NCBI GenBank assembly: GCA_011033025.1
Contig: WFMF01000211.1
Coordinates: 1 to 64,000, forward strand
Length of the DNA: 64,000 nt
Reading direction: 5' to 3'
Source of the DNA: Beroe forskalii
Lineage: Eukaryota > Ctenophora > Nuda > Beroida > Beroidae
A model generated the notes under the pieces. The model saw only the letters and a program-made list of their open reading frames with translations, ran no database searches and had not been told where the DNA came from. Below are positions 9,031-56,274 of this stretch, in pieces (position 1 is the first letter of the stretch; each line of letters starts with the position of its first letter). The position numbers and the translations under genes are program-made.

Positions 9031-9661
9031 GGTCGATTAACATTTCATACTACTAAAATAACTATAATTGAATCAGCACGCCCTCTGATCTCTCTGGAAT
9101 AACCAGTACTTCGGTAATACTAATTAAGGTAGAGTAATAGCCAGTATGATTTATGAAGTATTTGATTTCTGAGTATGTAGCTAATTCCCGCCAATATCGT
9201 GTGTAAAATACAGTATGTATATCTGGGATGTATATAGTACATGGCATTAGAATTGCAGTTAATCAAATGAACATCACATATATCACCGGCTCTGTCATGA
9301 TTTCTCTTCCTTGCATTTCTCTTCCTTATCCCACCCTCTCATTATTAACTCTTAAGTCCACTGCTGTGTTCCATGCTATCTTGTTTTTCAGTGGTGGAAT
9401 TCGCTGTTCCTATGAGTACACTACTTCAATTTGGCAATTTGATAAATAGACTCGATCATTTATCATTATTTTCAATCGAGCTCGATTTATGATTAGAAAG
9501 TTAGATTGGATCCATTGGCCCATTGCATCCATATTGCTATATGTAATTGGGTATTTGGGCAAATTCACAATTATTGTGACCCTTTTTTGCCAATAATCAC
9601 TTTTGACTTATTGCTTTACTGTATCACTGATCTGCATTTCACTAACTCTTTCCCTACAGTG

Positions 9662-10930
9662 ATGTATAGAAGGGGCCTCACTTTAGTGAGTAACGCTGTG
9701 AATACATGGAGCAAACCTAGAGCATGGCACATAGCAACACAATCTCGTTTCCTAGCAACACAACCTCGACTCGTAGCAACACAAACCTCACATGAGAAGC
9801 AACACGGTTCCAGTCAGGGAGAGGGGAAGTTCCCCAAAGTTGGATTGTTAGCAGCAGGTTTCACAGCCTTGGGTGGGGCCGCTCTTGCTATGGACGACTC
9901 TGGTGAAGAAATCCCCTTCAGTTTAGAAGACATAAGGTACAGCAACAGTAAACTTTTCAACCACTTTTACTCCTTTGCTTCCTACAAGTACGACAACGAA
10001 CTTTTCATGTCTGGGGATGATTTCCTGAAAGCTGTACTTGACAAAAAGCATCACGAGATGTCACCGGAGAGAACCAGCCCTATTATCGAGCTATCAGAAG
10101 TTGAGCACACTATGATTTTAGAAGAAGCCCCTCTCGTTATCAAGAAGGCCGGTATCTTCACTTCTCTTGGGAGTCGTGCTCTAATCAGTTTCCCAGAATA
10201 CGTGTTCCTGGTGTCCATTCTGAGTCACCCTAAGAGCCATCTCATGAAGATATTCCACATGATAGATGTGGACGGGAACCGGGTCTTGGACAAGGGAGAG
10301 TTCGAGCTGTTGGGCATGTTCTTTGGGGGCGTGGAATGCTCGTCTCACAACACTTCTCTTAAAGTGCACTTCTTCAAGCAAGATGGATCAGGAATCCTTA
10401 GCTCCAAAGCCTTTGTCCACTTCATAGATAGTCTACAGGCAGAATGCCTCAAGCTGGAATTCAATGAGTACGCAAGAGGAAAGAAGAAACTCACTGATAC
10501 AGCCTTCACTCAGCTCCTTCTGGACAGAACCACATTAGATGACGCAGAGAAGAATGTTTATGTCAGACGTGTTGAGCAGAGGAGTTACGGAGAAGAAAAC
10601 ATTTCTAAGATCGGGGTTACATTTGCTCAGTACAAGCAGTTCATGGACTTGCTCAACAATATCCACGACCTGGAAATGACACTGAGACTCTTTCACTTGG
10701 CCAAGAAACCCGTTACACCAGAAGAGTTCGGACGGGCCGTCAAAGTGAGCACTGGGATTCCACTTTCTGGAAGAATGATTGAACTGGCATTCAAGATATT
10801 TGACGATGACGGTGATGGTGCACTGAGCCACGAAGAGTTTGTGAAGGTCATGAAGGAAAGACTGCAGAGTCGGGGCGTCATTGACCAAGATGTAAAGGAT
10901 GTTGTCGAAGGTGGCGACTATGAATTTTAA
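9662..10930 (+). CDS. MICU-like mitochondrial calcium-uptake regulator, paralogue A
   Basis: This intronless frame encodes 422 residues. MICU proteins sit in the mitochondrial intermembrane space and gate the calcium uniporter through EF-hands. Seen here: an Arg/Ser/Thr-rich N-terminus with an LATQ-type repeat (likely targeting sequence), a hydrophobic GLLAAGFTALGGAALA segment, a first EF loop DVDGNRVLDKGE (~residue 201), a central FFKQDGSGILSSKAF segment, and a perfect C-terminal EF loop DDDGDGALSHEE (~380). The FHLAKKPVTPEEFGRAV segment is typical of the family. The ATG at 9662 is preferred over the in-frame ATG at 9506: an acceptor (TTCCCTACAG) lies one base pair upstream of the start context, and the paralogue starts at the same residue. 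No C-terminal cysteine, as used for MICU1-MICU2 dimers, is present. Which MICU subtype it is remains open. Confidence 0.93.
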   Translation: MYRRGLTLVSNAVNTWSKPRAWHIATQSRFLATQPRLVATQTSHEKQHGSSQGEGKFPKVGLLAAGFTALGGAALAMDDSGEEIPFSLEDIRYSNSKLFNHFYSFASYKYDNELFMSGDDFLKAVLDKKHHEMSPERTSPIIELSEVEHTMILEEAPLVIKKAGIFTSLGSRALISFPEYVFLVSILSHPKSHLMKIFHMIDVDGNRVLDKGEFELLGMFFGGVECSSHNTSLKVHFFKQDGSGILSSKAFVHFIDSLQAECLKLEFNEYARGKKKLTDTAFTQLLLDRTTLDDAEKNVYVRRVEQRSYGEENISKIGVTFAQYKQFMDLLNNIHDLEMTLRLFHLAKKPVTPEEFGRAVKVSTGIPLSGRMIELAFKIFDDDGDGALSHEEFVKVMKERLQSRGVIDQDVKDVVEGGDYEF

Positions 10931-12433: not shown

Positions 12434-13693
12434 CTATTCGCCTTCCACAACATCCCGCATTTCTTGATCTATGACACCACGGATTTGCAGTCTTTCCTTC
12501 ATGACCTTCATGAACTCTTCGTGGCCCAGAGCACCATCACCGTCGTCGTCAAATATCTTGAATGCCAGTTCAATCATTCTCGAAGAAAGTGGAATCCCAG
12601 TGCTCACTTTAACCGCCCTTGCGAATTCCTCTGGTGTAACAGGTTTCTTGGCCAAGTGAAAGAGTCTCAGTGTCATTTCCAGGTCGTGGATATTGTTGAG
12701 CAAGTCCATGAACTGCTTGTACTGAGCAAATGTAACCCCGATCTTAGAAATGTTTTCTTCTCCGTAACTCCTCTGCTCAACACGCCTAATGAACACATTC
12801 TTCTCTGCCTCACTCAGAGATGTCCTGTCGAGGAGGAGTTTGGTGAAAGCCGTGTCTGTCAGTTTCCTCTTCCCTTTGGCGTACTCATTGAACTCCACCT
12901 TCAAACATTCCGACTGGAGACTGTCAATGAAATGAACAAATGCCTTAGCGCTCAGTATGCCAGTACCGTCCTCTTTGAAGAAATGAACCTTCAGAGAGGT
13001 GTTGTGGGGAGAACTGAACTGAACACCTGAGAAAAACATTCCGAGGAGTTCGAATTCATCCTTGTCAAGGACTCGGTTCCCATCGGCATCTATCATGTGG
13101 AATATCTTGAGAAGGTGGCTTTTGGGGTGGCTCATGATGGAAACCAGGAAGAGGTATTCTGGAAAACTTATCAGAGCCTGGCTTCCCAGCGAAGTGAATA
13201 TTGAAGCCTTCTTGATACGGAGAGGTGCTTCCTCTAGGATCATCATGTGATCTGCCTCAGATAGCTCAACAATAGGGCTGGTTCTTTCAGGTGAGATTTC
13301 GTGATGCTCTTTGTCAAGTACTGCTTTCAAGAAATCATCTCCAGACATGAAAAGTTCGTTGTCGTACTTGTAGGAAGCAAAGGAGTAAAAGTGGTTGAAA
13401 AGTTTACTGTTGCTGTACCTAATGTCTTCTAAACTGAAGGGGATTTCTTCACCAGAGTCGTCGTTGGCCAGAGCAACCCCACCAAGAGCTGTGAAGCCTG
13501 CTGCTAACAATCCAACTTTGGGGAACTTCCCCTCTCCCTGACTGGAGCCGTGTTGCCTCTTGTCTGAGGTTTGTGTTGCTAGGAGTCGAGGTTGTGTTGC
13601 TAGGAAACGAGATTGTGTTGCTATGTGCCATGCCTTGGGTTTGCTGCATGTATTCACAGCATTGCTGACAAGACTTAGCCCCCTTCTATACAT
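12434..13693 (-). CDS. MICU-like mitochondrial calcium-uptake regulator, paralogue B
   Basis: This intronless 419-residue protein is close to paralogue A along its full length. It has the same MYRRGL start, LATQ repeats and hydrophobic segment, EF loop 1 DADGNRVLDKDE, a FFKEDGTGILSAKAF segment and EF loop 2 DDDGDGALGHEE. A splice acceptor (CTCCACAG) lies 2 bases before the ATG, as in paralogue A, which implies a non-coding 5' exon in both. The C-terminus (MRDVVEGE) is shorter and differs from A. The genes converge, with ~1.5 kb between their stop codons. Both EF loops keep their acidic ligands, so both copies look functional. Confidence 0.93.
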   Translation of the reverse strand: MYRRGLSLVSNAVNTCSKPKAWHIATQSRFLATQPRLLATQTSDKRQHGSSQGEGKFPKVGLLAAGFTALGGVALANDDSGEEIPFSLEDIRYSNSKLFNHFYSFASYKYDNELFMSGDDFLKAVLDKEHHEISPERTSPIVELSEADHMMILEEAPLRIKKASIFTSLGSQALISFPEYLFLVSIMSHPKSHLLKIFHMIDADGNRVLDKDEFELLGMFFSGVQFSSPHNTSLKVHFFKEDGTGILSAKAFVHFIDSLQSECLKVEFNEYAKGKRKLTDTAFTKLLLDRTSLSEAEKNVFIRRVEQRSYGEENISKIGVTFAQYKQFMDLLNNIHDLEMTLRLFHLAKKPVTPEEFARAVKVSTGIPLSSRMIELAFKIFDDDGDGALGHEEFMKVMKERLQIRGVIDQEMRDVVEGE

Positions 13694-13814
13694 GGCTGTG
13701 GAGAAAGGATTAGTGATATGATCAATGATTTAATTCATGAATCAAAAGCAACAAGACATCTAGATCATGAAGCCATATGGTCACTGATCGAGTTCACGGC
13801 AATTGACGGAAAGA

Positions 13815-31839: not shown

Positions 31840-32890
31840 AACTATTATAGTTGTTTCAACATTTTATCTTTTTAATTTCATGGTGCGATTGGGTTCCCAG
31901 ATGGCACCAGTTTCCTCAATTGGGATATAGAATTAGTCTTTGACTCCGAATTGTGTTGGACAACACGGACTCTGAAACTGTTTATTCCCAAATCCAATCA
32001 TGCCTTTTTGGGAGGATGAGCTGTTTTATTCTTCTACTCTGTATATGAAAAATAATAATTCTTCCACTTTGATGGAATGAAAAAATAATATTCTGACCAA
32101 TAGAATTACTCCTCAGCAGAGAAATCGCTTGATTTATTACCTGCAGTCAGCACCAACGAAATTTTCGTTTCTCATTAATAATTGATGAGAGACGAAAGTA
32201 TTCGAAAACGTGAGAATGACCTCTGTGCATATTAATATAGCTATATGCCCAAAGTCTATGATTTATTAATATGCCCATTCTATGATTTATCTAATTTTAC
32301 GAGCTCCTGTTATTTGTAGTCAGTTCGTAAGATTTCCAAGATACTTGGTGTTTCATGATCTCCATACATATTCATCATGATACTAAAAAGTAGATCGCAG
32401 CAAAATACTATCGGTGATAGTAGCTCTCATTATTATAAATTCTTTTCAATTCGCTAACGGATGAGCCACTTGTTTAGTACATAACTTTCGTTGACTTTGC
32501 CAACAATTTTCCATGATATTTCCCCACCTTTTTGTAATTGGACAGATTAAATTGCAGATTACATACACTTACTGTTCATATACTTGAGTTGCCCCCCAAA
32601 CCATCCCCCTCCGTAGTTTTGTATTTTTACTATGATGCAACACCAAATTATCACCAACTTTATAGCTTCGAAATGGGTCTTTCAGAGAGAAACTATTGCG
32701 AAGTAAAGTGGTCATAGAATACGCAAATAGTGGATGATTCGAATTTGAATTTTGCTTTTTTACAGTGACTTCATAATAGAAGAGTTGGTTCTCTCAATCT
32801 CGAGCATCACTCGTATCGCCTGACTCTCGGTGGATTGATGTAGCGTACTCTGAAGGTTAAGCGAATATAGATTTTAAATATATTTAGTTA
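31840..32890. other. 5' flank of the GPCR gene, no gene seen
   Basis: AT-rich sequence without a supported exon. No TATA box or other promoter element stands out upstream of 32,903. Confidence 0.5.
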
Positions 32891-32902
32891 TCAGAAGTCG
32901 AG

Positions 32903-35146
32903 ATGGTGGGTGTTTTTATAATCTTGCTTATGCCCCAGTGCGTTGTTTCAAAGAACATGACAATTCCTTTGATTGAAAAGATAACTGGGTCCCATGTTAG
33001 TCATAACTTGTTTAATGCCGATGGATTTGAGAACAATTGGAATTGTCTTCGGTTCTCTGTTAATGTCATTAAGCACATTTTGCAAGGTTTCCTCAGTCCC
33101 AAAAAACTTCGGGAGTTGGCCACCAACACCAATGACACCAATCCCATTTGTCGATTTAACTTCAATGCTTTCGATGCTTACCGGTTCGGACTTACCACCT
33201 TTGATCATAGGTACACGGAATGGTTTTGTGAGATAAAAGAGGACTTCATTTGTGACTATAGCAGTGAGTGTCTTACAGACGAGTGTCATTGTAAAGAGGA
33301 GGAAGAAGAGGGTTACGATGTTTTCTACTGTGCAGACGGTTCAGGGTGTGTTGCCTTCAGTAAGTTGTGTGACTCTATCCACCATTGCATTGATGGGTCG
33401 GACGAGTGCCTCTGTGAAGGGGTACACTCTTTCTCCTGTCCTGGCATCAGTGACACTCCCTTCTGCATGCAGGAAACCGATGACACTTGTGCTAGAATGG
33501 TGGAGTTTCTCAATCTCACTGAAGAGTGTAGTGGAGCACTGAAGGATTTCACCTGTAAGCCCGCAATGATGCTCAATGATTCTTTGGACTCCCATGATGA
33601 ATCATTTTTCGAGTGTTTGTTCAAAGGCTATGACACCGTTTTCTCGCCTGAGTTAAGTATCAGTGACGACACAGTACCGAAATACTGTCGGGAAAACTGC
33701 TCAGATAATGAAGGCTGGCGTTATTACTGTGATCACATCTTCAGGGGCGACCAATCGGGAAGCTTCCAGTTCAACATGCACGCTTATGTCTTCAACTGCG
33801 ACAAAGTTGCCTACTCCAGCAGCACGATCACTCTGCTCAACGTGTGTGATGGGATTGTGGACTGTAAAAACATGGCCGATGAGATCGGGTGCTCTGGTAG
33901 GTTCTATTGCTCTAACGACACGGCTGAGTGGACACACCTCTCCAAGGTTTGTGACAATGTTAAGGACTGCTCCAATGGGTGGGATGAGTGCCAGGAATGC
34001 AATGTGGGTTCCCTGTCCTCCAGCAAGTTCCTCATCCAGTCCAATGTTGTCTTCTCCTTCACCATCCTGGGTGGTTTGTCCATCTTCCTGACTAATGTGA
34101 TTGTGGGGGTGGAGTGTTACAGAAACCCCTCCGGTAACAGCGCTGGTTCTAAAGACAGACTCATTCGACTGCAGGTGTTTGTATATGACGGACTGATGGG
34201 TGTGTACATGTGTCTGATAGTGATCGCTGCCATCATTCTCCGGACTAAAGGAGACTTCTGCCAGTATGAAGAGATGTGGCGGTCCAGCATCCCCTGTTCT
34301 CTGCTGGGTGTGGTGTTCTCTGTTTCCTCCCATGGGTCTCTGATCACCATCGTCTTCCTGAGTTTGGTAAGGTGTGCTGTGTGTCATAACCGAGGGGATG
34401 TGTTCACTGGGGGTGTTATCAAGGGAGTCTCTGTAGCGCTGTGGTTCCTCAATATTTCCAATGCAGTGCTTCCTTTGCTGCCCATTCCTGAAGTTCAGAA
34501 CATCTTCAGAACGGAGATCTTCCTGGCAAATGCCCAGGATAACCCCTTCATCAATTCCAATCCTCTGAACATGACCAAAGTAAATGATCTGCATTTCAAG
34601 GTGTTTGGAAGGGAAGATACCATCTACAATGCCCTTGAAAACCTCAACAACTTGACTTCCAACCACCACATGTTTGATTACCTGGAGATAGGTTACTATG
34701 GCAACACAGCTGAGTGTGTCCACAACCTCTTCAGCTCCAAGTCCTCCTTTGAAACCTTCAAGCTGAGTTACTGCACATGTGTCTCAATGCTGCTCCTGGT
34801 CCTCAGTGCCTCCTACATCCTTATAGTTCGGAATGATATGAAAGGGAAAGCCGAGTTGGCGAGGGTTGGAGGACCTCAGAATGCTGACACAGCCACCGCT
34901 CTGACCGTCAAAGTCACCCTGATGATCCTCACTCAGTTCTTCAGCTGGGTGTCCCTCATTGTCACCCTCATCTACTTCAAGTACATTGCTCGTAGACCTG
35001 CCCCCATGGAAGTGTTTGAGTGGTTTGCTCTGGTTGTCATCCCAGTCAACAGCCTTCTCAACCCTATCTTCTACACTCACCTTTACAAGAGGTGGACCAC
35101 CTCCATGTGGAGACTCTGGAGACTGGTTGTCAACCATTTCCATTAG
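32903..35146 (+). CDS. LDLa-repeat GPCR with LGR-like 7TM domain, single exon
   Basis: An intact 747-residue frame. A short hydrophobic N-terminus (MVGVFIILLMPQCVVS) is a likely signal peptide. LDL-receptor class A modules follow at about residues 142-170, 297-330 and 334-363, each with the C-D-G-x-D-C...DE pattern. Seven membrane segments follow at about 380-403, 422-446, 466-489, 505-527, 622-643, 668-692 and 704-726. TM2 has YDGLMGVYM, like the D-x-x-M-G-x-Y of LGR/relaxin-type receptors, and TM7 has NPIFY. The usual ERW after TM3 is LVRC. Extracellular loop 2 is long (~93 residues) with several N-glycosylation motifs. No leucine-rich repeats lie between LDLa and 7TM, unlike relaxin receptors or GRL101. 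The ligand is unknown. The final codons lie inside the first unit of a tandem repeat. Confidence 0.93.
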   Translation: MVGVFIILLMPQCVVSKNMTIPLIEKITGSHVSHNLFNADGFENNWNCLRFSVNVIKHILQGFLSPKKLRELATNTNDTNPICRFNFNAFDAYRFGLTTFDHRYTEWFCEIKEDFICDYSSECLTDECHCKEEEEEGYDVFYCADGSGCVAFSKLCDSIHHCIDGSDECLCEGVHSFSCPGISDTPFCMQETDDTCARMVEFLNLTEECSGALKDFTCKPAMMLNDSLDSHDESFFECLFKGYDTVFSPELSISDDTVPKYCRENCSDNEGWRYYCDHIFRGDQSGSFQFNMHAYVFNCDKVAYSSSTITLLNVCDGIVDCKNMADEIGCSGRFYCSNDTAEWTHLSKVCDNVKDCSNGWDECQECNVGSLSSSKFLIQSNVVFSFTILGGLSIFLTNVIVGVECYRNPSGNSAGSKDRLIRLQVFVYDGLMGVYMCLIVIAAIILRTKGDFCQYEEMWRSSIPCSLLGVVFSVSSHGSLITIVFLSLVRCAVCHNRGDVFTGGVIKGVSVALWFLNISNAVLPLLPIPEVQNIFRTEIFLANAQDNPFINSNPLNMTKVNDLHFKVFGREDTIYNALENLNNLTSNHHMFDYLEIGYYGNTAECVHNLFSSKSSFETFKLSYCTCVSMLLLVLSASYILIVRNDMKGKAELARVGGPQNADTATALTVKVTLMILTQFFSWVSLIVTLIYFKYIARRPAPMEVFEWFALVVIPVNSLLNPIFYTHLYKRWTTSMWRLWRLVVNHFH

Positions 35147-43492: not shown

Positions 43493-44036
43493 AAGCTGGG
43501 TCAGTCTCCCATATAAACGGGAGCCTTCATTATCTATGACAATGACGTCACTCAGAAAAATATAATTAAGCGCACCTAGCGCTTTAAGGACTTGGGTTAG
43601 GGTTAGGATTAAGGTTAGGGTTTTTGTTAGGGCTATGGTTTAGGTTAGGTTTAGGATACAGAAAAATTGACGTTTAGATCTGTGACGTCACTCAGCCCCG
43701 TTTATATGGGAGACATACCTAAAGCGCTAGGTGCAGTGCGCTTAATTATATTTTTCTGAGTGACGTCATTGTCATAGATAATGAAGGCTCCCGTTTACAT
43801 GGGAGACGTACCTCATTATCTATGACAATGACGTCACTCAGAAAAATATAATTAAGCGCATCTAGCGCTTTAAAGGTTAGGGTCAGGATTAGGGTCAGGA
43901 TTTGTTAGGTTTAGGGTAAGGATTAAGGTTAGGGTTTTGGTTAGGGTCATGGTTAGGTTTAGGATACAGAAAAATTGACCTTTAGATCTGTGACGTCATT
44001 CAGCCTCGTTTTCATGCAGGGAGACATACCCAGCTC
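43493..44036. repeat. Nested inverted repeats enclosing TTAGGG-like tracts
   Basis: The outer ends AGCTGGGT...TCTCCC and the reverse complement at ~44,010-44,036 are inverted. Inside, unit A (ATTATCTATGACAATGACGTC then GCGCACCTAGCGCTTTA) occurs at 43,530, inverted at ~43,725-43,790, and again at ~43,813. Each forward copy is followed by ~100 bases of degenerate GGTTAGGGTTAGGATTAAGG. The end motif GTTTATATGGGAGACATACC also occurs internally, as if elements had inserted back to back. Confidence 0.8.
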
Positions 44037-45291: not shown

Positions 45292-48200
45292 ATGGGAACA
45301 CGTCAATTTATAGATTGGCTGAATGATCGACTGGACAAGAGAACATTTCCTGGTTGTGTATGGGTTGACAAAGGACAAAAGATATTTAAGATATCATGGC
45401 CAAGAGCAGACAGAAGTATGAACCCAGATAAACTCGAGATAATGTTTGACTGGTGGACCCACAAGTTTGGAAACACAAGAACACACAATCAGCCCACTGC
45501 AATCAAGGGAAACTTCAGGTTATTGCTGTTCATTCTTACAAAGATGACACCACATCTAGTAATTTGCATTACATGTAAACAACTGTAGAACTGTGTGCTA
45601 ATGAGTGTTATCCTTAATGAGTTATAGTCTATTTCAAATTGTAACAATTTTTAAGCAGACTTCATTGAATTCAAATGAATTAAGGTTAGATGAACTATGT
45701 CATTGAACTCAGTTGACTCAATAGATCTAAAAGAAATTATGGATCCTTTCAGAAACAATATTAGGCTTGTATCCAATAGTCTAATTCATTTGATGATTTT
45801 ATCTACTCTGATGGATCCATAACTATTAGATTTGCTGGACACCCTTGGACATTCTTTCATATATTCATTGGACATGTCCATGTCATATATTCATTGTCCA
45901 TTAAACATGAAAGATTGAATGTATTCATTCATTGGACAATATTCACTATTCTTGGAGACTTTTGGTTTTCACTTGATTATCATTTTCAGGTCCTGCCTGA
46001 ATAGCAAAGTGCAGAACTTAGAGATCAAGAAACTGCAAAGCATGAATGTAAGGCAAGGTGATAATGATTGGAAATTCTTTCAGTTTACAGATGACAAAAA
46101 AGCTACAAAGGCTACAAAACCAGAAAGGTAAAAATCCATAATTTGAATTATTGTACATTAATCAGGAAATGATATAGGCCTTAGACTTGGCCAAACTTAA
46201 TCCTTCTCTTAAATTTGTTCTCAGCAAATTTTTGCTTCAAGTTGCTTCAATTCTTTTGTTCTTCATGTTCTTCATTTTACAACCTAGAAATTATGAAATA
46301 ATGACTAGACACTGGAATGATGTAGACCATGTTTAAATGTCATAAAAACAGATAGACTGTGCCAAAAGGTGGTAAATTCTCCAAATTGGAAGCAACTGAG
46401 CATCAAAAGGACATGCTGTGACCCACATTTTAACATTTTCTTATTTTGATAGTTATTCATCTATCATTTGAATTAATCGACAACTTTATCTATAATATGT
46501 TTTGTTTTAGGTCACTCCACGTGTCTAAGGATGCAGCATCAAGGTGAGTGTGTTAGAATTATTGATACATTCATGCCATTTTCATTGAAACTATTTCAGA
46601 GTTCTTTTTCAACATAAAATCTTCATCAACTTTTAATTGGAGCATTGTATAGTTATTCAGATGCATTCAGCTAGGGTGAATAATGGCACAGGAGACCAGT
46701 TTGTGGCAAATTTTTAATCAACATGATTCTTTGCCATAGTCTTTCCCCCTCCTTTGCATGTCATTACATGGTTTTGAGTTACTAGGGGCTTAGGACATCA
46801 TTTAGACATTTTTCTTGGGACCTTTTGAAATGTAAGGGTAGCCTACATTTGCATTTTTGAAGCAATGCCTACCTTACGTTTTACCTTATGACAAAGTATG
46901 ATAAAGATGCTCCAAGCGACTACATTTATAATCAGTTAAATATAATAAGTTAAATATAATAAGTTAAATATAATAAGTTAAAAAGAATGAAAGAATGTCA
47001 TCACATAAAGGTCACCATAATATAAAATGATAAATTCAGTCACAAAAATGTTACACTCTTCAAGGAAGGTGTGAATATTCAGGAATAAAAGTGCACTTTT
47101 ATAAATGATTTTTGAACAATTTAAGAACATTAGGTACCATGTTTATTTCTGGTTTTCATTCCTTCCTCAAATGATAGGTACCATTTGTAGTTCATGATTT
47201 GGGACCTACCAAAGACTCAAAATGAGCAAATAAGGCACCAATTTTTCGATTGGTTCCATTCTGTTACTACGTTTAAAAAGCATTATTTGATAATTATTGA
47301 TTTTGTTGGGAAGATACTTTTAATTGCTACCTCATGAACAAACGTAGCAAGCGAAATTTAAATGTGTTTTGGTCGTACTGTGTTATAAAGTATATGGTGC
47401 TGTATGTCTGTGTTATTATGGATGTTTCTATTCAGAATTGACTGTGCTTTCCATGTAGAAGTATGCTGTGCACCATAAAATGAGAAGATGATATCAGAAA
47501 GGAGTTTCATCATGGGAAATTTTGTCAGAAGAATTGGTACTATAACAAATATAGAGAGATACCAGTAGAATACATGACAGTGGAGAGATTGCCATAAATC
47601 TCTCCACTTTTAAAGCAAGGTATCCTTTATACCTATTTCTTACTAACGTTTTACTTTTAAGCCCACCTCAATTCTGGCGGTATCCAATCTCAAGTGGTAC
47701 TAGTGGTTTGTGCTCTACTGACTCAGATAAAAGTGATGAAATTGCAGAAACTCAGCCTCAAGTCAAAAGAGGACCCACTCTCAAAGTTCTTGTTAACCAG
47801 CCCTGCAGACCTGCTAACCAGGTGATTAACCAGATAGTTCTAGGGATTTAACCAGTTTGTTTACCAGTTTACCTGGTAGTCAGGTAGTTAACCAGGAATT
47901 TAACCAGGTAGTTACCTTATCCGGTATTCATGCATTTAAACTAGTTGATAAAGTTACCAGCTGGCTTTACTCAGTGGTCAGATTACAGAAAAATTAATAT
48001 CAATATCAAACTTTTCAAGTATCAATAGACACAGATGATGTGTTACCAGTTTTTGACTAATGCAATCAACTGTTTTCAGCTTGTCAAGACTTCTATGGAT
48101 AAAGAAGAGGTCTGCCATAGCCCACCACACTTGAAGAATGCCCGTGCTCCCAATGTTACACCAGTTTACGCCAATCCAAAAGTGAAACCTCAACTTCCTG

Positions 48201-48796
48201 TGGAACCGATCTTGAGGCCTGATAAAAGCACCCCTCAGCAGATGAGACCGGTTATTGACCCCCTCACCTTCTCCATCCATTCTCCTCATCTTGGGGGGAC
48301 AAGTGGTCACTCAATCGCTGATACTGAAGATAAGGCTCCTTTACAGAATCCCATACAGGGATCTGCCAGCTCTACATTGAAACCTGAACTGTACAACCTG
48401 AGTCTAATCCTGCAGAATAAAAACGTGAACGAAATACTGAGGGAGCTGTTCAAGAATCAACCGCATCCTGCAAATGCAAATGGGGAAGGTAGCTCCTCTC
48501 AATTCAGTAACGAACAGTCTGGCAAGCACTCTCAGTGCTCCTCTTCTTCAGCAGAGGTAATTAGTGTGAAGGAGGAGGAAAGCATGTGTCCCATGGTGCA
48601 GGAGACAGACTCCTCCAAGAACACTATCTCATCTTTCCTTCAGTACATCGGGAAGGAACTGGAAAAACTGCCTTATGAGGCTCAAGAAAAAGCCAAAATA
48701 GAGATATTCCAGGTGATATCAGACCTGAAGAAGCAGAGTAAACCTACCATGTTCATGGTTCCTGATCACTGGCAGCTTCGTGGTAATCAGCCGTAG
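45292..48796 (+). CDS. Interferon regulatory factor, isoform ending in a BESS-like motif
   Basis: Five exons join in phase: 45292-45518, 45990-46127, 46511-46543, 47662-47821, 48080-48796 (424 residues). The first two encode an IRF winged-helix DNA-binding domain. Tryptophans at 9, 24, 36 and 54/55 match four of the five in the family's tryptophan pentad, and the recognition-helix region reads KGNFRSCLNS. IRFs are DNA-binding transcription factors. The start is the first ATG, just before the fold begins. The last exon is Ser/Pro-rich and ends with ISSFLQYIGKELEKLPYEAQ and KAKIEIFQVISDLKK (48,626-48,733), resembling the BESS protein-interaction motif. That motif is not a normal part of IRFs. 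An AATAAA 190 bases after the stop supports a real 3' end here. Exon 46511-46543 can also join the IAD exons by phase (see next CDS). Confidence 0.8.
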
Positions 48797-48839
48797 TACT
48801 ACGAGAGTGATGGCCTCCGTGACCAGGCCAGGATCTACC

Positions 48840-51800
48840 TCTGAATATCAGCAAGCAGGAAAGAAGATGATGTAAGAGTATAAGGTCATACTGTTGTACA
48901 GTGTTAATAAGGGATCTTTACTCGTGTTGGGGTCTGCTACGCTTGCCATGCCACATCCCCTTCAGTTAGTACCTTAGTAAACGAGAATAAAGCCAGATGC
49001 AGCTGATTAATGACGAATTGATTGATGTCAGTAGAGATTGATGTCAGTGGAGATTGAAAGAGATAAATGAGTGAAACTATTTGGCAGCGTTGAGATGCAT
49101 TTTAGTGCGTATTAGACGAGGAGCAGCCGAGGTTAATAATAGCTTGATATGCTCGATATAGATATGCTTCGAAGCGATGGCCTTTTGTTATCATATCATA
49201 AGGTGAGCAGAAATTTTGCACTGTTTGTGATACAAGAATCCTCGCGAGGCCTTTTTCTTAAAAGTATGTCAATCTACAAGTACCACAGTATTATTTGCAC
49301 AGCCTTGTAGTCAGAAATAACAAATTTCTTCCTGTTAGCGTACTTCTATAACGTCAACAAGACGTAATGCCCATCGTCCTCCGTTCTTTAACCTTCCGCC
49401 AAAACATTACGATCATGAGGAAGTCAGTTGTTACACGTGTCGCAGTGTGTAATCTGATTTGCTATTCAATTACCAATCTCCCGGAAAAGTGTGTACTCGG
49501 TGTTAATAAAACATGATACAATGTGATGAAACATGATACCCGGGCTCTAATCTACGAAACTGGAAACCTGTATAATATTTCTCGGCAAGGGGGGACAGTT
49601 GTTTTAAAGTGTCAAAATGGTGGGGAAGTGTCTGGAACAAATTTCGATACATACCATAAGGCTATTTATTATGAATTAACAGTGAAAAATTGTTCGAATT
49701 GTCAAAAAAATCCATAAGACTCAAAAATGGAAGATTTCGACAAAATTTGATGAGATAATAGTAAAAATTTGAAAAGCTACCATGGGCGTTTTGGAACCTT
49801 GATTTCTAAAAGTATTATCAACCATGGCACATTTTTGATAAGCAGTCCTCCGGCCAAATTCTCGAAAATTCATCATATGTAACTCCATGAAAAAAGTACG
49901 TGAACCCCCCCCATTTTCTCAACAAAATTTATCACAAACTTTTGACTTTTCGATAATAAAGTAATAATAACACATACATATGCAGTAAAATCCGTTTAAT
50001 GTTATCTCTTTGTCTAATCTCTCTAAGGTTTCTTCAGATGGATCATATTGCAAAATTTCAAGGAAACAATTTTACGGGCTGTGCACTGTTAATAATGTTC
50101 CCCATATGTATGTTTTCGGCTCCCTTGGTCCGATATAAAAAGTAACGGCTCGGACGTTACGTGCACGACCCCCCCCCCCCAATTAAAAAGGTTTTATTTT
50201 GGGTGAGGATCCAAACCAATATGGACCCGATCACTTTCCCACATGCATGTACATGTTTATGCATACCAATTTCATGCTTGCCTCATAATATAACAACTTA
50301 ACAATAGGTTATCATTTCGATGCATATTGACTTTGTACAATGTACATGATATTAAACACGGCTTCTCCTCGTCTAATATGGACTAATGCACCTCAATTCA
50401 CAAATAGTAGTCATATTATATTGTGGACACTGATGAAAACGTCCATAAAATGGTGGAATGTCTGTGTGTTTCCTGATTGGTTGATATTATGATGAAATGA
50501 AATTATTGAAATTACGGGACTGTGAAGATGTATGATTGTGATGAAAGAATGAAGAATAATGAAATACTTTGATACATTGAACGGGTGGATTTTGTTGTTA
50601 GCGAAGCGTCTTGATTTATCCACTGTCAATTGGAGAGCTTACTATGTTGCGTGAACGCTTCTTTATTAACACCAATTGCTTGAAAATGCCGATGTTCAAT
50701 GTTTTCAATAATTCAAACATTCAAAATATGTTTCTAATTCAGATTGTGAAATGTTCAAGGAGATTTGTCTATAAAATTCAAATATTAGTATGATTTGCTC
50801 CTATATCACGAGTTTTCAAGTGAAATGAAATTGATAATTGAAATGTGTTTTGTTTACTGTTTAGCATTTCTCTCGTGCAGAGGTCAAGGCATTCAGTTCT
50901 CATTACTGAGTGAAATGTCGCAAGCTTCCATGGGAAATAATTCAGTATGATCTCCATTTCATTCGTAACTGTTTCCGAAGTTACAAACATTCTTTTTCTT
51001 AAAAAATACTTACTGTTTGAGGGGAATGAATTGATAATGCTGCAGAGAGATATGCTAAACCCTGAAATGCACTTGAAAGGTAATATGTTTTTAATATATT
51101 TATTTTCTGCATTCAAGTTTTCATTATTCTTGGAATTGTAATAATATTTCATTTGTTTTATTGGCACAGGCAATTTTCAAGAGAAGGCTAATTCAATTCA
51201 GCAATCTTATCGAGTAATATCAAGTTATACAGTTATCACTACTTCTTGTTGTCTTTTAAAAGACTTAAAGACACCGGTTTCTGTAATATAATACTCAGAA
51301 CTGAAACCTAAAGACTAAAGTCGCCAGAGGGCATAGTCTTCAGTTCCTAAAAGCACTTTACTCAGGTTCTTTTAGCTTTTAGTTTTCAAAGACTTAGTTG
51401 GTATAGTCCTTAGCCTAAAGTGTCAAACAATATCTGGAAAATTCTACGTTTTCAATTAAAGTTGACAGGGTGTTTGAAACTTTTTGAAATTAGACATAAA
51501 ATTCATTATTTTCATTAAAGCAAAAGTACTGTCCAGGAGTAACAGTTTCTTCTATCATGGAATCTTTAAAGCTTCATACCTTTATCCATAGTATATACCT
51601 GTGATTTCATCCAAAAACTGGACCAATGGTTCAATGGGTGAAGAACTCATTTGTGAAGACTTTTAAATAATTGGTATATCAATAGCTTCATCTTAGGTCC
51701 AAGTCCCAACTTCAACATTTTTCTTCCCTCTTTGGGAAAGTTCCCCCTTGAAATTTTGAAAATTTGTAATTTCCATTTCGACAACCCACCCCTGCAGAAG

Positions 51801-52140
51801 GTATCTGAGAAGGTACCCTTTGAAGCAAGACAAACGTAGTAAAAAATGGATTGATTCCTGTAATTTCACACTCATTCCTTATGTCTATGATCACTTGAAT
51901 GATGATCAATGATAGTTAATAATACTGTAAGTGAATATTCTAAAAAGTGACATCTTGCATACTGTGCCTCAAGCCTCGTAGAATCTCTGGAACAGAGAAC
52001 CAGGACTCTGGTAAATTGGGGGTGCAGCCCCTAGAAGCCAGAGGTTCTGAGAAAAAACTCAAATTCTCGCCAGTTCGTTCATATCTTTCCATTGCAGTAT
52101 TATCACATGTCACAAAACCAGTGTATCTTTGAATAAGTTT
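48840..52140. other. Long intron or intergenic stretch within the IRF locus
   Basis: AT-rich sequence with a C-run at 50,168. No exon with good borders was found. The short frames at 49,523 and 50,947 show no domain. A 5' end for a separate IAD gene could in principle lie here, but I see none. Confidence 0.5.
48986..48991 (+). terminator. Poly(A) signal after the BESS-like terminal exon
   Basis: AATAAA lies 190 bases downstream of the TAG at 48,796, on the sense strand. Confidence 0.6.
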
Positions 52141-52153
52141 AGAACTTTTTCAG

Positions 52154-55100
52154 TAGTGAAAGTGAGCCTCCTGGATTGGAACAATATGAGCCACCATCGG
52201 AGTTATATCAGGAGGACCACATTGACGGGGAATTCAAGGAAGTGATCAATGAGGCTCGGAGATGGCAACTTGGCATCAGGGTGAGTAGTAGGTACCCAAG
52301 ATATATGCGTTAATGATAGTCCATTATATATGGGCCTGGGTGTTATCTACACATTAGCCATGGACTATACTCCATGGACATTACTCCATGGACTATATCC
52401 TTGGAATATAGCCATGGACCAACTCCATGGACTATAGCCATGGGCTATAATACTCTGAATGGAGTATGGACTATAGCCGTAGACTAATTACTGGCTGTAC
52501 TTTACGTGTGTCTGCATGCAGCAGAGAGGTGGTTACTCCAAGTTGGTAATCCAAGGTCTTATCTATAAAGGTGCTATGGGTAATGGGTATATTACTATAT
52601 TACAAACATATCAAAGTACTGCAAACCGATGTTATACTTTATACCAATTTACTTTACACAGGTATTCACGCAAGACAAGACGCTAATTCAGCCTGAATAC
52701 ACTTATGATTACATGATGGCGCACCAGGGATGCCACAAGCTCCATTTCTACTGTTCAGGTGATTTGATATTTCAGATAAGCAGCACCAGCACCTTTTTCA
52801 GGTTATAAAATATACACTTATTCCACAATTATTCTATAGATACTTCTCATGATATGATATGTTTTATTTCATATTGATTTATGCCAATTTATCACTGTGT
52901 CAACACTTCGTCAGGTAACGAGAAGAGACAACGTCGGTTGCCCTTCATCTACAATCACCAACTCCCTGACTCTAACCCTGCACATATCATCCCCGTACCA
53001 ATAGACCCTGCCAACCACCCCTATCTCAACAAGAAGTTCCCCAGCCCCTCCAGATCGGAAGTTAGGGCAGAAGTTGACTGGCTTTGCAATTGTTATGGAT
53101 ACTGGAATTAAAATTAAGTTGAATTAAATGGAATTTGTCAGCATGATCGTAAGATAATATTTGATTGTTATCACAGGATGCCAAAAGAGTAAATCTGGCC
53201 CTTGCAACTTTGTAAAAGAGTAAAAGCAGTCCAATTTGTTACCCTGAACTTCTCCTTTTTTTCAGGGAACCTGACAGGACTACTGACATGTCGGAGCTCT
53301 TCTGTCCTGGATTTATCTTGGAAGTTGACAACATGTTCAATATCTACATAACCAGGTAGGTACTTGTTATGTATTATTTGGTTGAATGATTCGCTCTCAG
53401 TCTCTCACTGTCTTAATGTTTCTATTCTCGAGGTTGAATTTTACGGTAAAAGTTTTACAAACTGTTACAAATCCAGAAATTGCTAAGGTTACTTTATATT
53501 AGTCCTCATTTGTTAGGTTTACTTAAATAGTATCTGTTACATCGTACCAATATTATAAATTGAGCATGACAGTGTGGCCCTGTGTAAGGTTTCAGAGAAC
53601 TCGGAGGAAATATTATACTTCTTCGTGAGTGAATTTTAATTCAATCCGGATAAAATCGTAGAATCTAGAAGTGTCGTGATTCACTGGAATGACAGAAGGC
53701 TTCAATTTACTTCTTCATTGTTCACCAAGATTCAATAGATTGTGCCGTGTTTATTATTGTTGCAAATTATTTCAAAAGCTGGCAATTATTGCGGCGTCAC
53801 GATAGCTGGAAGACAATTCTATTTCATTGTTGTCAAAATTACTAGAGCAGGCCCATTATTCCTTTATTCGAGATTACTTTATACATGAATCTAGGCGGAC
53901 AAATAGCAACGATCTACCCTGCCCGCTTTAATTTCAGCCTTAAGCTTACCATTCACTCTTTCGGGCCTTTTTTCTTTTACAGGGATTATTGACTTCCTTC
54001 AAGTATTTTGAAATTCGAGAGGCATTTATCACGGAATTATTTCTTACCGGTCTGTACTGTAACTAGTTTTTGTTATTGGTTTCAGGCTCAGTCAAAAGCG
54101 GATTCAGTATGGTCACCATGGATCTACAAACTGTTGGGTGGACTTGGAGTCACCAAAGGGAAAGCCCCCAAATGGTAAGGCTCAATTCCTTCCATTGAGT
54201 ACCATAATCAGATCTCGGTTTCTAGCAAATATGTGAGTGCGTTATCCATCCCATTTTGACTAATTCTGCCCCTTACTAATTCTGTCTTGCAGCTGTTCGA
54301 GTGAATCAGATGGTTTCATATTGACTGCAATCACTCCGATCTTAATTGCAGCTGTCGTAGTGGCGGCAGCTGCCGTTCATTTTGAATAATTTCATCCCCT
54401 TATTCCTCTCTGACCTGCTGCTGTTAGAGTAGGCAGTTACGAAATAGTGCTCATTTTGACTCCTTTCACTCCCTACTTACGCATCCTGTTTTGACAGCTT
54501 TTATTCCAAGGTACTTATCCCTTTATTCTCTCCTCTTTTCAGCTGTTGGAGTGAGACAGATGGTGTTCAGCTACCCAAAGTACGTACACCGGCTCTACGT
54601 CTACCTCAAGTGGCTGGACGACCCCACTGTGGGTAAACCAGTAGTGGAGATGATCACCCCTACGGTGGTGATTGCTGTGAGCGCTAAGCCGGAGTTAGGA
54701 CAGAGTTACACGGCGGGGGAGGCAGGGGAGTTCTACTTTGAGATAGAGCATCGGGCTGCTAGTAGACTTCACAAGATGGTGCTGGAGAAAGAGAGTTCCA
54801 CTCCACAACAACCCAACATAAGTGAAGACCAATACTCCACAACAACCCAACGTTAGTTGGCAGCTACTGATTTATTCTACCGCTGTGCAGCTACTTACTT
54901 ATTCCGCATGCTGAAAGGAAAAGTTGCATCACCACAAATCAGAAAAGAAAATTGAGTACTGTAGGTTTTTTTGTCGTGAGTAATTCTTTAAATTTGAGGC
55001 TGTTGAGCTCCTTGTCCTACAGATAAGTGAAGACCAATACGAGTACATCACGGGAATGATGGATAAAGTGAACATCTCTGCTGGTAACGGCGGCCCCTCC

Positions 55101-56272
55101 TACATCCCCCAACCCTCAGTGAGTTGCAGTCGTCAGGCCCCTCCTGCATACGGCCCTTCCCAGCAACCCCCTGGGATCCTGTTCGACGCCCAGCAGCCTC
55201 CCATGTACTCCTGCGAAGCACCTCTCTTCGTCACCCAACCCTCGCCCGGGTGCAGCGTAACCTCCCCTCCCATGGAAGTTATCAACGGTTTCGAGCAGGA
55301 CATGCGTATGGCTGCGTACCAGGACGCCTTCTCTCCCATCAGCGGCGCTCCGTCACCCTGAGTGTCTCTCGCCACAGAGTGTGGGGTCCTCTTTCTCTGC
55401 TTCTTCTACAACGACACTCGGTCGAGAGGCTCTAGGTGAGTTAGGGCTGTGAACAGTGAACGAATACGTTATTATGAAGGAATAGGATATTAAGCGGTTA
55501 CATGTCGAAGTGGTGACCGTATACCGCAACTTACATGGTCGAGGCGACAGCCGAGACTGTGTAAGTTAGATAATGGACGAGGCGTGCCGAGTTCATTATC
55601 GAAGGTATACGGTCACAGCTGAATCATGGAACCGTTTATACCCCGACCGGAAATAGTTTTGGGCCTATAGTTATTCTCGTCAAAACAACAGCATTTCTTC
55701 CCACTCGGGTCTGACGACCCTCGTCCGGATTCAACGCTTAAGTAGATTTTGAGTGCTCCTTTATAAAATCAAATATCATTTTAACCTTTTTTGCACTGTC
55801 ATTCAATGGAGACCGTATAACCAAACTTACACGGTCGCTAAGACAAGCTTGGAAGGGGTATAATACCGTTTATAGGAATGTTTCATGAATACAGTATTGC
55901 CTTTTTTATGTTTATATGTTAACGATTGTTTGCTCCCTCAGAAGCGCACAGTGCGCGGCTGCGCGAGGAAGGTCTCACTGCGGCTACGGCTCCTGGAGAC
56001 TACCCTTTCATTCACAGCAACGAGCCTAACCTAAACGAGGCTGCCGTGACTTGGACCAACCCCTACTCGCCCTTAAGTGAGGCGTCCACCATAGTGGAAC
56101 AGGTGGGCCCCCCGAACAAGGAATTCAAATTTTACGTTCTTTATACAGGATTGTTACGATGCTGCACCCACCTACCTTCTTACTTTTATTTTTAGTAAGT
56201 TAGTACCTACAGCATACAGGTACCATATTCAGTAACCTATTCCTCCCTCAGCCAAACGAGTACCAATTCTGA
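52154..56272 (+). CDS. IRF-association domain (IAD) exons of the IRF locus
   Basis: Exons: 52154-52280, 52662-52758, 52915-~53034, 53266-53355, 54086-54174, 54543-~54851, 55023-~55435, 55942-56102, 56252-56272. They encode FTQDKTLIQ...AHQGCHKLHFYCS, LPFIYNHQLPDSNP, ELFCPGFILEVDNMFNIYIT, RLSQKRIQYGHHG and MVFSYPKYVHRLYVYLKWL, matching the order of elements in the IRF C-terminal IAD (IRF-3-type fold), used for dimerisation and partner binding. A Pro-rich tail follows. The first exon starts in phase 2, so it can accept the exon ending at 46,543 and complete a DBD-IAD protein. Problems: no clean phase-2 donor closes the exon starting at 52,915 (AA|GTTCCC at ~53,034 is the best fit); the 54,543 exon carries a 34-base insertion; the 55,023 exon needs a one-base frame change before its donor, otherwise it stops at 55,361. 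Confidence 0.7.
52330..52520. repeat. CCATGGACTATA palindrome cluster
   Basis: About eight copies of CCATGGACTATA/TATAGCCATGG lie in the intron after the first IAD exon, close in sequence to the interior and ends of the 37,405-37,999 element (ACGTGTGTCTGCATGCAG at the right edge). It is probably a diverged relative, without clear ends. Confidence 0.65.
54297..54334 (+). pseudogene. Decayed duplicate of the start of the next IAD exon
   Basis: CTTGCAG|CTGTTCGAGTGAATCAGATGGTTTCATAT duplicates the acceptor and first ~30 bases of the real exon at 54,543 (TTTTCAG|CTGTTGGAGTGAGACAGATGGTGTTCAGC), but it runs into TGA after ~10 codons. Confidence 0.7.
55494..55634. mobile_element. Small inverted-repeat element in the IAD intron
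   Basis: The left end CGGTTACATG...GTGACCGTATACC matches the reverse complement of the right end (GGTATACGGTCAC...CATGGAACCG). A partial relative (GGAGACCGTATAACC...TACACGGTCG) follows at 55,808-55,840. Noncoding. Confidence 0.6.
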
Positions 56273-56274
56273 AA

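What the first reader, a model, noticed from the sequence alone, without database searches (positions are those of the whole stretch)
45292..56272. IRF locus with two phase-compatible C-terminal halves: BESS-like versus IAD
The DNA-binding exons end with a 33-base exon (46,511-46,543) in phase 2. Both the exon at 47,662 (leading to a Ser/Pro-rich terminal exon with a BESS-like motif, stop and AATAAA) and the exon at 52,154 (leading to the canonical IAD) start in the matching phase. One gene could thus make a classical DBD-IAD factor and a DBD-BESS factor without the dimerisation domain. I know of no IRF with a BESS-like end. Exon borders and phases are seen; alternative use and the BESS assignment are inference.
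Basis: partly seen in the sequence, partly recalled or inferred. Interest (0 to 1): 0.8.

Follow-up and report, generated by a model that had tools for sequence, protein, structure and literature searches.

The report
Immune switch gene with alternative endings
A distant animal relative of the interferon-response switch genes has one DNA-binding front half followed by two possible back halves, so one gene may make two proteins that act differently, but no transcript evidence was available to show it.

Summary
The exon map is real. Three exons (45292-45518, 45990-46127, 46511-46543) encode one IRF DNA-binding domain (Pfam IRF, E=5.7e-13); each ends in phase 2. Two downstream acceptors fit that phase: 47662 (two exons, stop at 48796, AATAAA at 48986) and 52154 (seven exons, stop at 54856). 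Codon usage supports coding in the DBD, exon 48080-48796 and the 52154 half, but is ambiguous for exon 47662-47821. No second DBD was found, and no start exon between the halves stood out from control stretches.

Both domain names need correcting. The 52154 half is no canonical IAD: no Pfam IAD match, while a control gave 1.2e-67. It carries seven IAD blocks in order with a score reached by 0 of 1500 shuffles, but other profile tests were weak or negative. I read it as a strongly diverged IAD/MH2-type domain. The tail motif does not match Pfam BESS; it is a predicted helical hairpin with a BESS-like pattern.

Best reading: alternative last exon, giving a DBD-IAD factor and an IAD-less DBD-tail factor, probably a competitor or repressor. 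Use of both junctions is unproven: no RNA, no relatives.

The parts
45292..45518 (+). DBD exon 1, ATG start (in-frame stop just upstream), 227 nt, ends phase 2, gttatt donor (top 12.1% of 861)
   Evidence: PF00605 spans protein residues 6-108
45990..46127 (+). DBD exon 2 (recognition helix region FRSCLNS), 138 nt, ends phase 2
   Evidence: PDB IRF alignments
46511..46543 (+). 33-nt hinge exon, ends phase 2, gtgagt donor (top 0.1% of 861)
47662..47821 (+). tail exon A, starts phase 2, ends phase 0; codon usage ambiguous
48080..48796 (+). tail terminal exon, 239 codons including stop, the tail being 23% Ser+Pro
   Evidence: composition
48626..48733 (+). BESS-like helical hairpin (two helices predicted, most of it pLDDT above 90); not a Pfam BESS match
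48986..48991 (+). AATAAA, 190 nt after the tail stop
52154..52280 (+). first exon of the IAD-like half, starts phase 2, no Met codon, ends phase 0
52662..52758 (+). IAD-like exon (ends phase 1)
52915..53060 (+). IAD-like exon with FPSP block (ends phase 0)
53177..53211 (+). 35-nt exon needed to keep the frame; weak donor tttgtaaaa (top 51% of 861)
   Evidence: inference
53266..53355 (+). IAD-like exon (GFILEVD..IYITR)
54086..54174 (+). IAD-like exon (LSQKRIQYG..)
54543..54856 (+). IAD-like exon (VFSYPKYVHRLYVY, EFYFEIEHRAASRL); in-frame TAG at 54854-54856
55023..55362 (+). further probable coding exon, Pro/Gln-rich, ends TGA; joining to the previous exon unresolved
   Evidence: (frame from 55023 scores 0.319)

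Best explanation
One divergent IRF gene with an alternative last exon. Its three DBD exons make an IRF-type DNA-binding domain. From the strong donor at 46543 the transcript either joins 47662 and ends at the polyadenylation signal near 48986, giving a 424-residue DBD plus Ser/Pro-rich tail protein with a C-terminal helical hairpin, or skips these exons and joins 52154, giving a DBD plus a strongly diverged IAD/MH2-type domain. The long form would be the ordinary signal-activated IRF. The short form keeps most of the DNA-contacting helix but not the IAD, so it would occupy the same sites without kinase-driven dimerisation, as competitor or repressor, possibly self-associating through the hairpin. 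Shown: exon borders, phases, open frames, IRF DBD, mutual exclusion by phase. Inferred: use of both junctions, the IAD fold, the function of the tail.
For: IRF DBD: PF00605 E=5.7e-13; 20 of the 22 PDB sequences listed at E<=1 are IRFs, one more is a viral IRF-like protein and one an unrelated P450. Both downstream halves start in the phase that all three DBD exons end in, and exon 47662-47821 ends in phase 0. Codon usage favours the used frame in the DBD, exon 48080-48796 and the IAD-like half. The first IAD-like exon has an acceptor and no Met codon. No second DBD by tblastn over the window. Of 9 candidate start exons with a phase-2 donor at 48.8-52.15 kb the best coding score is 5.1; six control stretches give 3-9 candidates with best scores 2.0-8.6; the DBD exon scores 10.0. 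IAD blocks in order: score 58.6, 0 of 1500 shuffles reach it, best of 11 fragments of other window ORFs 35.9, SMAD3 41.4. Precedent: human IRF3 splice forms lacking IAD parts inhibit or compete with IRF3 (PMC8636596, passages seen).
Against: No RNA; no related locus. No Pfam, NCBIfam or PDB match for the IAD-like half. Local HMM: 45 of 2000 shuffles score as well; hhalign: 60 of 300; full-length semi-global profile: 18 of 400 and in a wrong register; pairwise global: 4 of 400 with IRF5, 24 with IRF4, 61 with IRF8, 79 with IRF3, 64 with SMAD3. The fold model is useless (pLDDT 34.1). Exon 53177-53211 has a weak donor, exon 47662-47821 ambiguous codon usage. The blocks were cut after I had looked at the window protein, and one of seven is misplaced against my reading by eye.
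Confidence: 0.6

Rival explanations
1. Two genes: the DBD with its tail is a complete IAD-less IRF, and the exons from 52154 belong to a neighbouring gene with its own promoter and a start exon that I missed, or to the remnant of a second IRF gene that lost its DBD.
For: The tail half has its own stop and AATAAA. Candidate start exons with a phase-2 donor exist in the gap (9; best 48810-48871). By DBD the closest PDB chains are 8hcs, 8hcm and IRF2/IRF1 rather than IRF4, and the IRF1/2 group has no IAD1 (PMC2885996, passages).
Against: Candidates are no more numerous or coding-like than in control stretches; no second DBD; first IAD-like exon starts in the exact phase and has no Met.
Confidence: 0.22
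2. Only the DBD-IAD form is used; the tail exons are a cryptic or decaying leftover (for example a captured gene end) rarely spliced.
For: Exon 47662-47821 has ambiguous codon usage; no relative of the tail found.
Against: 717-nt frame open with coding-like codon usage, consensus splice dinucleotides and an AATAAA.
Confidence: 0.13
3. The 52154 half is not an IAD at all but another beta-rich domain; the locus still has two alternative ends.
For: Pfam, hhalign and local HMM tests negative or weak.
Against: Seven IAD blocks in order, 0 of 1500 shuffles; C-terminal segment 1 of 400 shuffles, segment chosen by eye.
Confidence: 0.2

Closest known systems
Interferon regulatory factors of the DBD plus IAD (IRF4-group) layout
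   Same: N-terminal IRF DBD, then a half with IAD blocks FPSP / GFILE / IYITRLSQKRI / VFSYPKYVHRL / FYFEIEHRAASRL in order
   Different: IAD too diverged for Pfam; DBD closest to IRF1/2-type chains; extra terminal exons between DBD and IAD
IRF1/IRF2 group (no IAD1)
   Same: DBD ranks 8hcs/8hcm, IRF2 and IRF1 first; a Ser/Pro-rich end without IAD1 is the general layout
   Different: tail has no useful similarity to recalled IRF1/IRF2 C-termini (best E=0.15 over 20 residues)
IRF3 splice isoforms (nirs3, CL, mIRF-3a)
   Same: IRF forms lacking all or part of the IAD from one gene (PMC8636596, passages)
   Different: there by exon skipping or alternative splice sites; here by a separate terminal exon of 239 codons with its own AATAAA
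BESS domain proteins (BEAF, MADF-BESS)
   Same: short C-terminal helical motif with the pattern FL..(I/L)...L.KLP.E.Q....I.I.Q; 11 of 33 identities to a consensus-like string
   Different: no PF02944 match; with a second consensus-like string 70 of 2000 shuffles of the tail score as well

Membership tests
IRF family | N-terminal IRF DNA-binding domain (PF00605 above its cut-off) | tested here: met
   49.5 bits against a cut-off of 27, profile positions 2-104 of 105
IRF family | tryptophan cluster and recognition helix (positions recalled) | tested here: inconclusive
   alignment to an 8hcs segment keeps four of the five tryptophans (the one before KANFR is I) and reads KGNFRSCLNS for KANFRCALNS
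IRF with IAD1 | Pfam PF10401 match | tested here: not met
   none at E<=10; control fragment 227.6 bits
IRF with IAD1 | colinear IAD sequence blocks | tested here: met
   58.6, 0 of 1500 shuffles, one of seven blocks doubtful; other tests weak
IRF with IAD1 | IAD/MH2 fold | tested here: inconclusive
   single-sequence model pLDDT 34.1
BESS motif | PF02944 match | tested here: not met
   none at E<=10 for 424-, 61- and 41-residue queries; control 63.6 bits
BESS motif | self-association or protein binding | not testable with these tools
   needs a bench test
Alternative last exon | both junctions in transcripts | not testable with these tools
   no RNA data
Alternative last exon | frame-compatible, mutually exclusive terminal halves | tested here: met

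The most novel reading that the evidence does not exclude
One locus makes two IRFs of different logic: a signal-dependent DBD-IAD factor and a DBD factor whose dimerisation module has been swapped for a BESS-type hairpin, so that alternative polyadenylation switches IRF target genes between inducible activation and constitutive (chromatin- or insulator-like) occupancy; the locus would also span the IRF1-like (no IAD1) and IRF4-like (IAD1) layouts.
Probability: 0.17. Interest if true: 0.75.

Novelty: new variant of a known kind. Interest (0 to 1): 0.45.

Why it matters
If both junctions are used, the choice between activation and blocking of IRF target genes would sit in the choice of last exon within one gene, a simple circuit that could be tested by immune challenge. 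It would also bear on how IRFs with and without IAD1 arose. IRF isoforms without IAD are known from human IRF3 (PMC8636596), so the principle is not new; a dedicated, long alternative terminal exon would be a new form of it. My paper search for 'interferon regulatory factor' with 'BESS' gave 60 papers; the titles and abstract starts of the 20 listed showed no such IRF, and a search on IRF with alternative last exon/polyadenylation (74 papers, 12 listed) showed none either. These searches cover one open-access library only.

Tried and rejected
Whole-genome search: no genome is held for this window. Relatives in viral contigs by DBD, IAD-like half and tail: pattern hits 5, 4 and 3, none confirmed. 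Genome contigs was not scanned (prokaryotes only). NCBIfam: nothing. Rfam and tRNA scans of the window: nothing. PDB search with the tail: best E 0.45, SMC3 coiled coil, rejected as composition; with the IAD-like half: best E 0.54, a viral polymerase, rejected. Foldseek of the hairpin: one match, E 8.2, rejected (collected). PDB search with a BESS consensus-like string gave no BESS structure. Direct joining of exon 52915-53060 to 53266 breaks the frame, so the 35-nt exon was inferred. First start-exon scan used a donor threshold that also missed the true DBD exon; it was repeated with a lower one. The idea that the tail is an IRF1/2-type end was not supported.

The organism was not identified. 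A first coding intron in phase 2, as here, is listed for both sea urchin and two acorn worm IRF-like genes (and one lancelet gene), against phase 0 in the other lancelet genes (PMC2885996 table, passages); a weak hint only.
Full report
Observation. The DBD exons are 45292-45518 (ATG with an in-frame stop just upstream), 45990-46127 and 46511-46543, each with AG/GT borders; cumulative length leaves phase 2 after each. Two acceptors downstream fit: 47662 and 52154. From 47662 two exons lead to a TAG at 48796 and AATAAA at 48986; the joined product has 424 residues. From 52154 seven exons keep an open frame to 54856. Because exon 47662-47821 ends in phase 0 and 52154 needs phase 2, the tail exon cannot be included ahead of the IAD-like half without a frameshift. 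Phase agreement by itself has a 1 in 3 chance per acceptor and should not be over-read.

Coding evidence. With codon frequencies from three long ORFs of the window as reference, the used frame beats the other forward frames in the DBD, exon 48080-48796, the IAD-like half and a further exon from 55023, but not in exon 47662-47821 (53 codons). In exon 48080-48796 one reverse frame also scores slightly positive (0.087 against 0.258). Splice scores are mostly good; weak points are the donor of exon 53177-53211, the donor at 53060 (top 20.0%) and the acceptors at 47662 and 52154 (top 13.5% and 19.1%). Exon 53177-53211 is inferred because direct joining of its neighbours breaks the frame.

DBD. Pfam IRF matches with 49.5 bits, E=5.7e-13. 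In the PDB, 22 distinct sequences pass E<=1: 20 IRFs, one viral IRF-like protein and one P450; the best are 8hcs and 8hcm and then IRF2 and IRF1. The recognition-helix stretch reads KGNFRSCLNS against KANFRCALNS in the 8hcs segment, and four of five aligned tryptophans are kept (that these positions contact DNA is recalled).

The 52154 half. Pfam does not find PF10401 in it, while the control fragment scores 1.2e-67 and even touches MH2 at 2.1e-4. PDB and NCBIfam searches give nothing meaningful. Against vertebrate IAD profiles: local HMM, 45 of 2000 shuffles at least as good (759 shuffles gave no reported score), with an MH2 profile 24 of 2000; hhalign through the tool, P 0.3, but with FILE..IYITRLSQKRI against VLW..LYAKRLCQSRI in register; own hhalign run, 60 of 300 shuffles at least as good, SMAD3 scoring 25.7 against 15.0; pairwise global, 4, 24, 61, 79 and 64 of 400 shuffles for IRF5, IRF4, IRF8, IRF3 and SMAD3; semi-global profile, 18 of 400 for the whole half in a wrong register, 1 of 400 for the C-terminal segment, which I had chosen by eye, with SMAD3 at 1 of 400 and the reversed segment at 36 of 400. 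A colinear block test over the whole half gives 58.6 with 0 of 1500 shuffles reaching it, the reversed sequence 18.6, the best of 11 fragments of other window ORFs 35.9, SMAD3 41.4 (3 of 1500 shuffles) and IRF3 108.0 against blocks from the four others. Six of the seven blocks fall where I had aligned them by eye; the FQVTLCFGE block does not. The block cuts were made with knowledge of the window protein. The AlphaFold model without alignment is useless. Taken together I hold a diverged IAD/MH2-type domain to be probable, about 0.8, not shown.

The tail. It is 23% Ser plus Pro. Its last part is predicted as two helices joined by a turn, mean pLDDT 77.9 for 64 residues and above 90 in the helices; Foldseek finds no solved match. 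Pfam BESS is not matched by three overlapping queries at E<=10, with a working control; HMMER's filters can drop weak hits. Against the control string the motif scores 39, next best stretch in the window 20, 0 of 2000 shuffles; against a second string 17, with 70 of 2000 tail shuffles as good and other window stretches scoring up to 20. The first string may be biased by my having seen the motif. So 'BESS-like' is a description, not a membership.

One gene or two. tblastn of the DBD over the window finds only the known exons and chance hits. Start exons with a phase-2 donor at 48.8-52.15 kb: 9 candidates, best coding score 5.1; six control stretches: 3 to 9 candidates, best 2.0 to 8.6; the true DBD exon 10.0. 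Nothing stands out, but a short or non-coding first exon cannot be excluded. The first IAD-like exon has no Met codon.

Mechanism. The likely arrangement is an alternative last exon. The donor at 46543 is among the strongest in the region. Early polyadenylation near 48986 would give the short protein; read-through and skipping would give the long one. In human IRF3, isoforms lacking the IAD or part of it compete for the promoter or block nuclear shuttling (PMC8636596, passages). By analogy the short form should be a competitor. The hairpin may add self-association, as BESS does in BEAF (PMC5021357, passages), but this rests on resemblance.

Known or new. IRF-like genes of non-vertebrate deuterostomes vary widely in exon layout and phases (PMC2885996, passages). 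The searches that I ran found no IRF with a BESS-like end or dedicated alternative terminal exon (60 papers, 20 listed; 41, 20 listed; 74, 12 listed; listings only). I class it as a new variant of a known kind, if real.

Noticed in passing
54293-54324: Short copy of the start of exon 54543 (CTGTTCGAGTGAATCAGATGG against CTGTTGGAGTGAGACAGATGG) behind its own tcttgcag acceptor, with an early in-frame TGA: a decayed duplicate exon or a poison exon of the IAD-like half.
   Followed up: partly
54802-54851 and 55023-55040: A 16-nt stretch occurs twice, 34 nt apart, and the 18 nt between the copies equal the first 18 nt of the exon at 55023. It looks like a spliced exon-exon junction present in genomic DNA, or an assembly error, and it changes the frame before the Pro/Gln-rich exon.
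   Followed up: partly
55943-56107 and 56253-56273: Further exon-like open stretches (PGDYPFIHSNEPNLNEAAVTWTNPYSPLSEASTIVEQ, then PNEYQF and stop) that may continue the long form; how they join is unresolved.
   Followed up: no
9497-10930 (+) and 12434-13729 (-): Two near-identical long single-exon ORFs in opposite orientation; EF hands found in the one scanned; MICU-like by recall, possibly retrocopies.
   Followed up: partly
32888-35146: Single-exon ORF of 752 codons resembling an LDL-receptor-repeat GPCR (label recalled, no profile search run).
   Followed up: no
43499-44016: Palindromic MITE-like repeats with GTGACGTCA motifs (arms 77 nt, 96%, and 48 nt, 100% complementary) about 1.3 kb upstream of the DBD start.
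   Followed up: no
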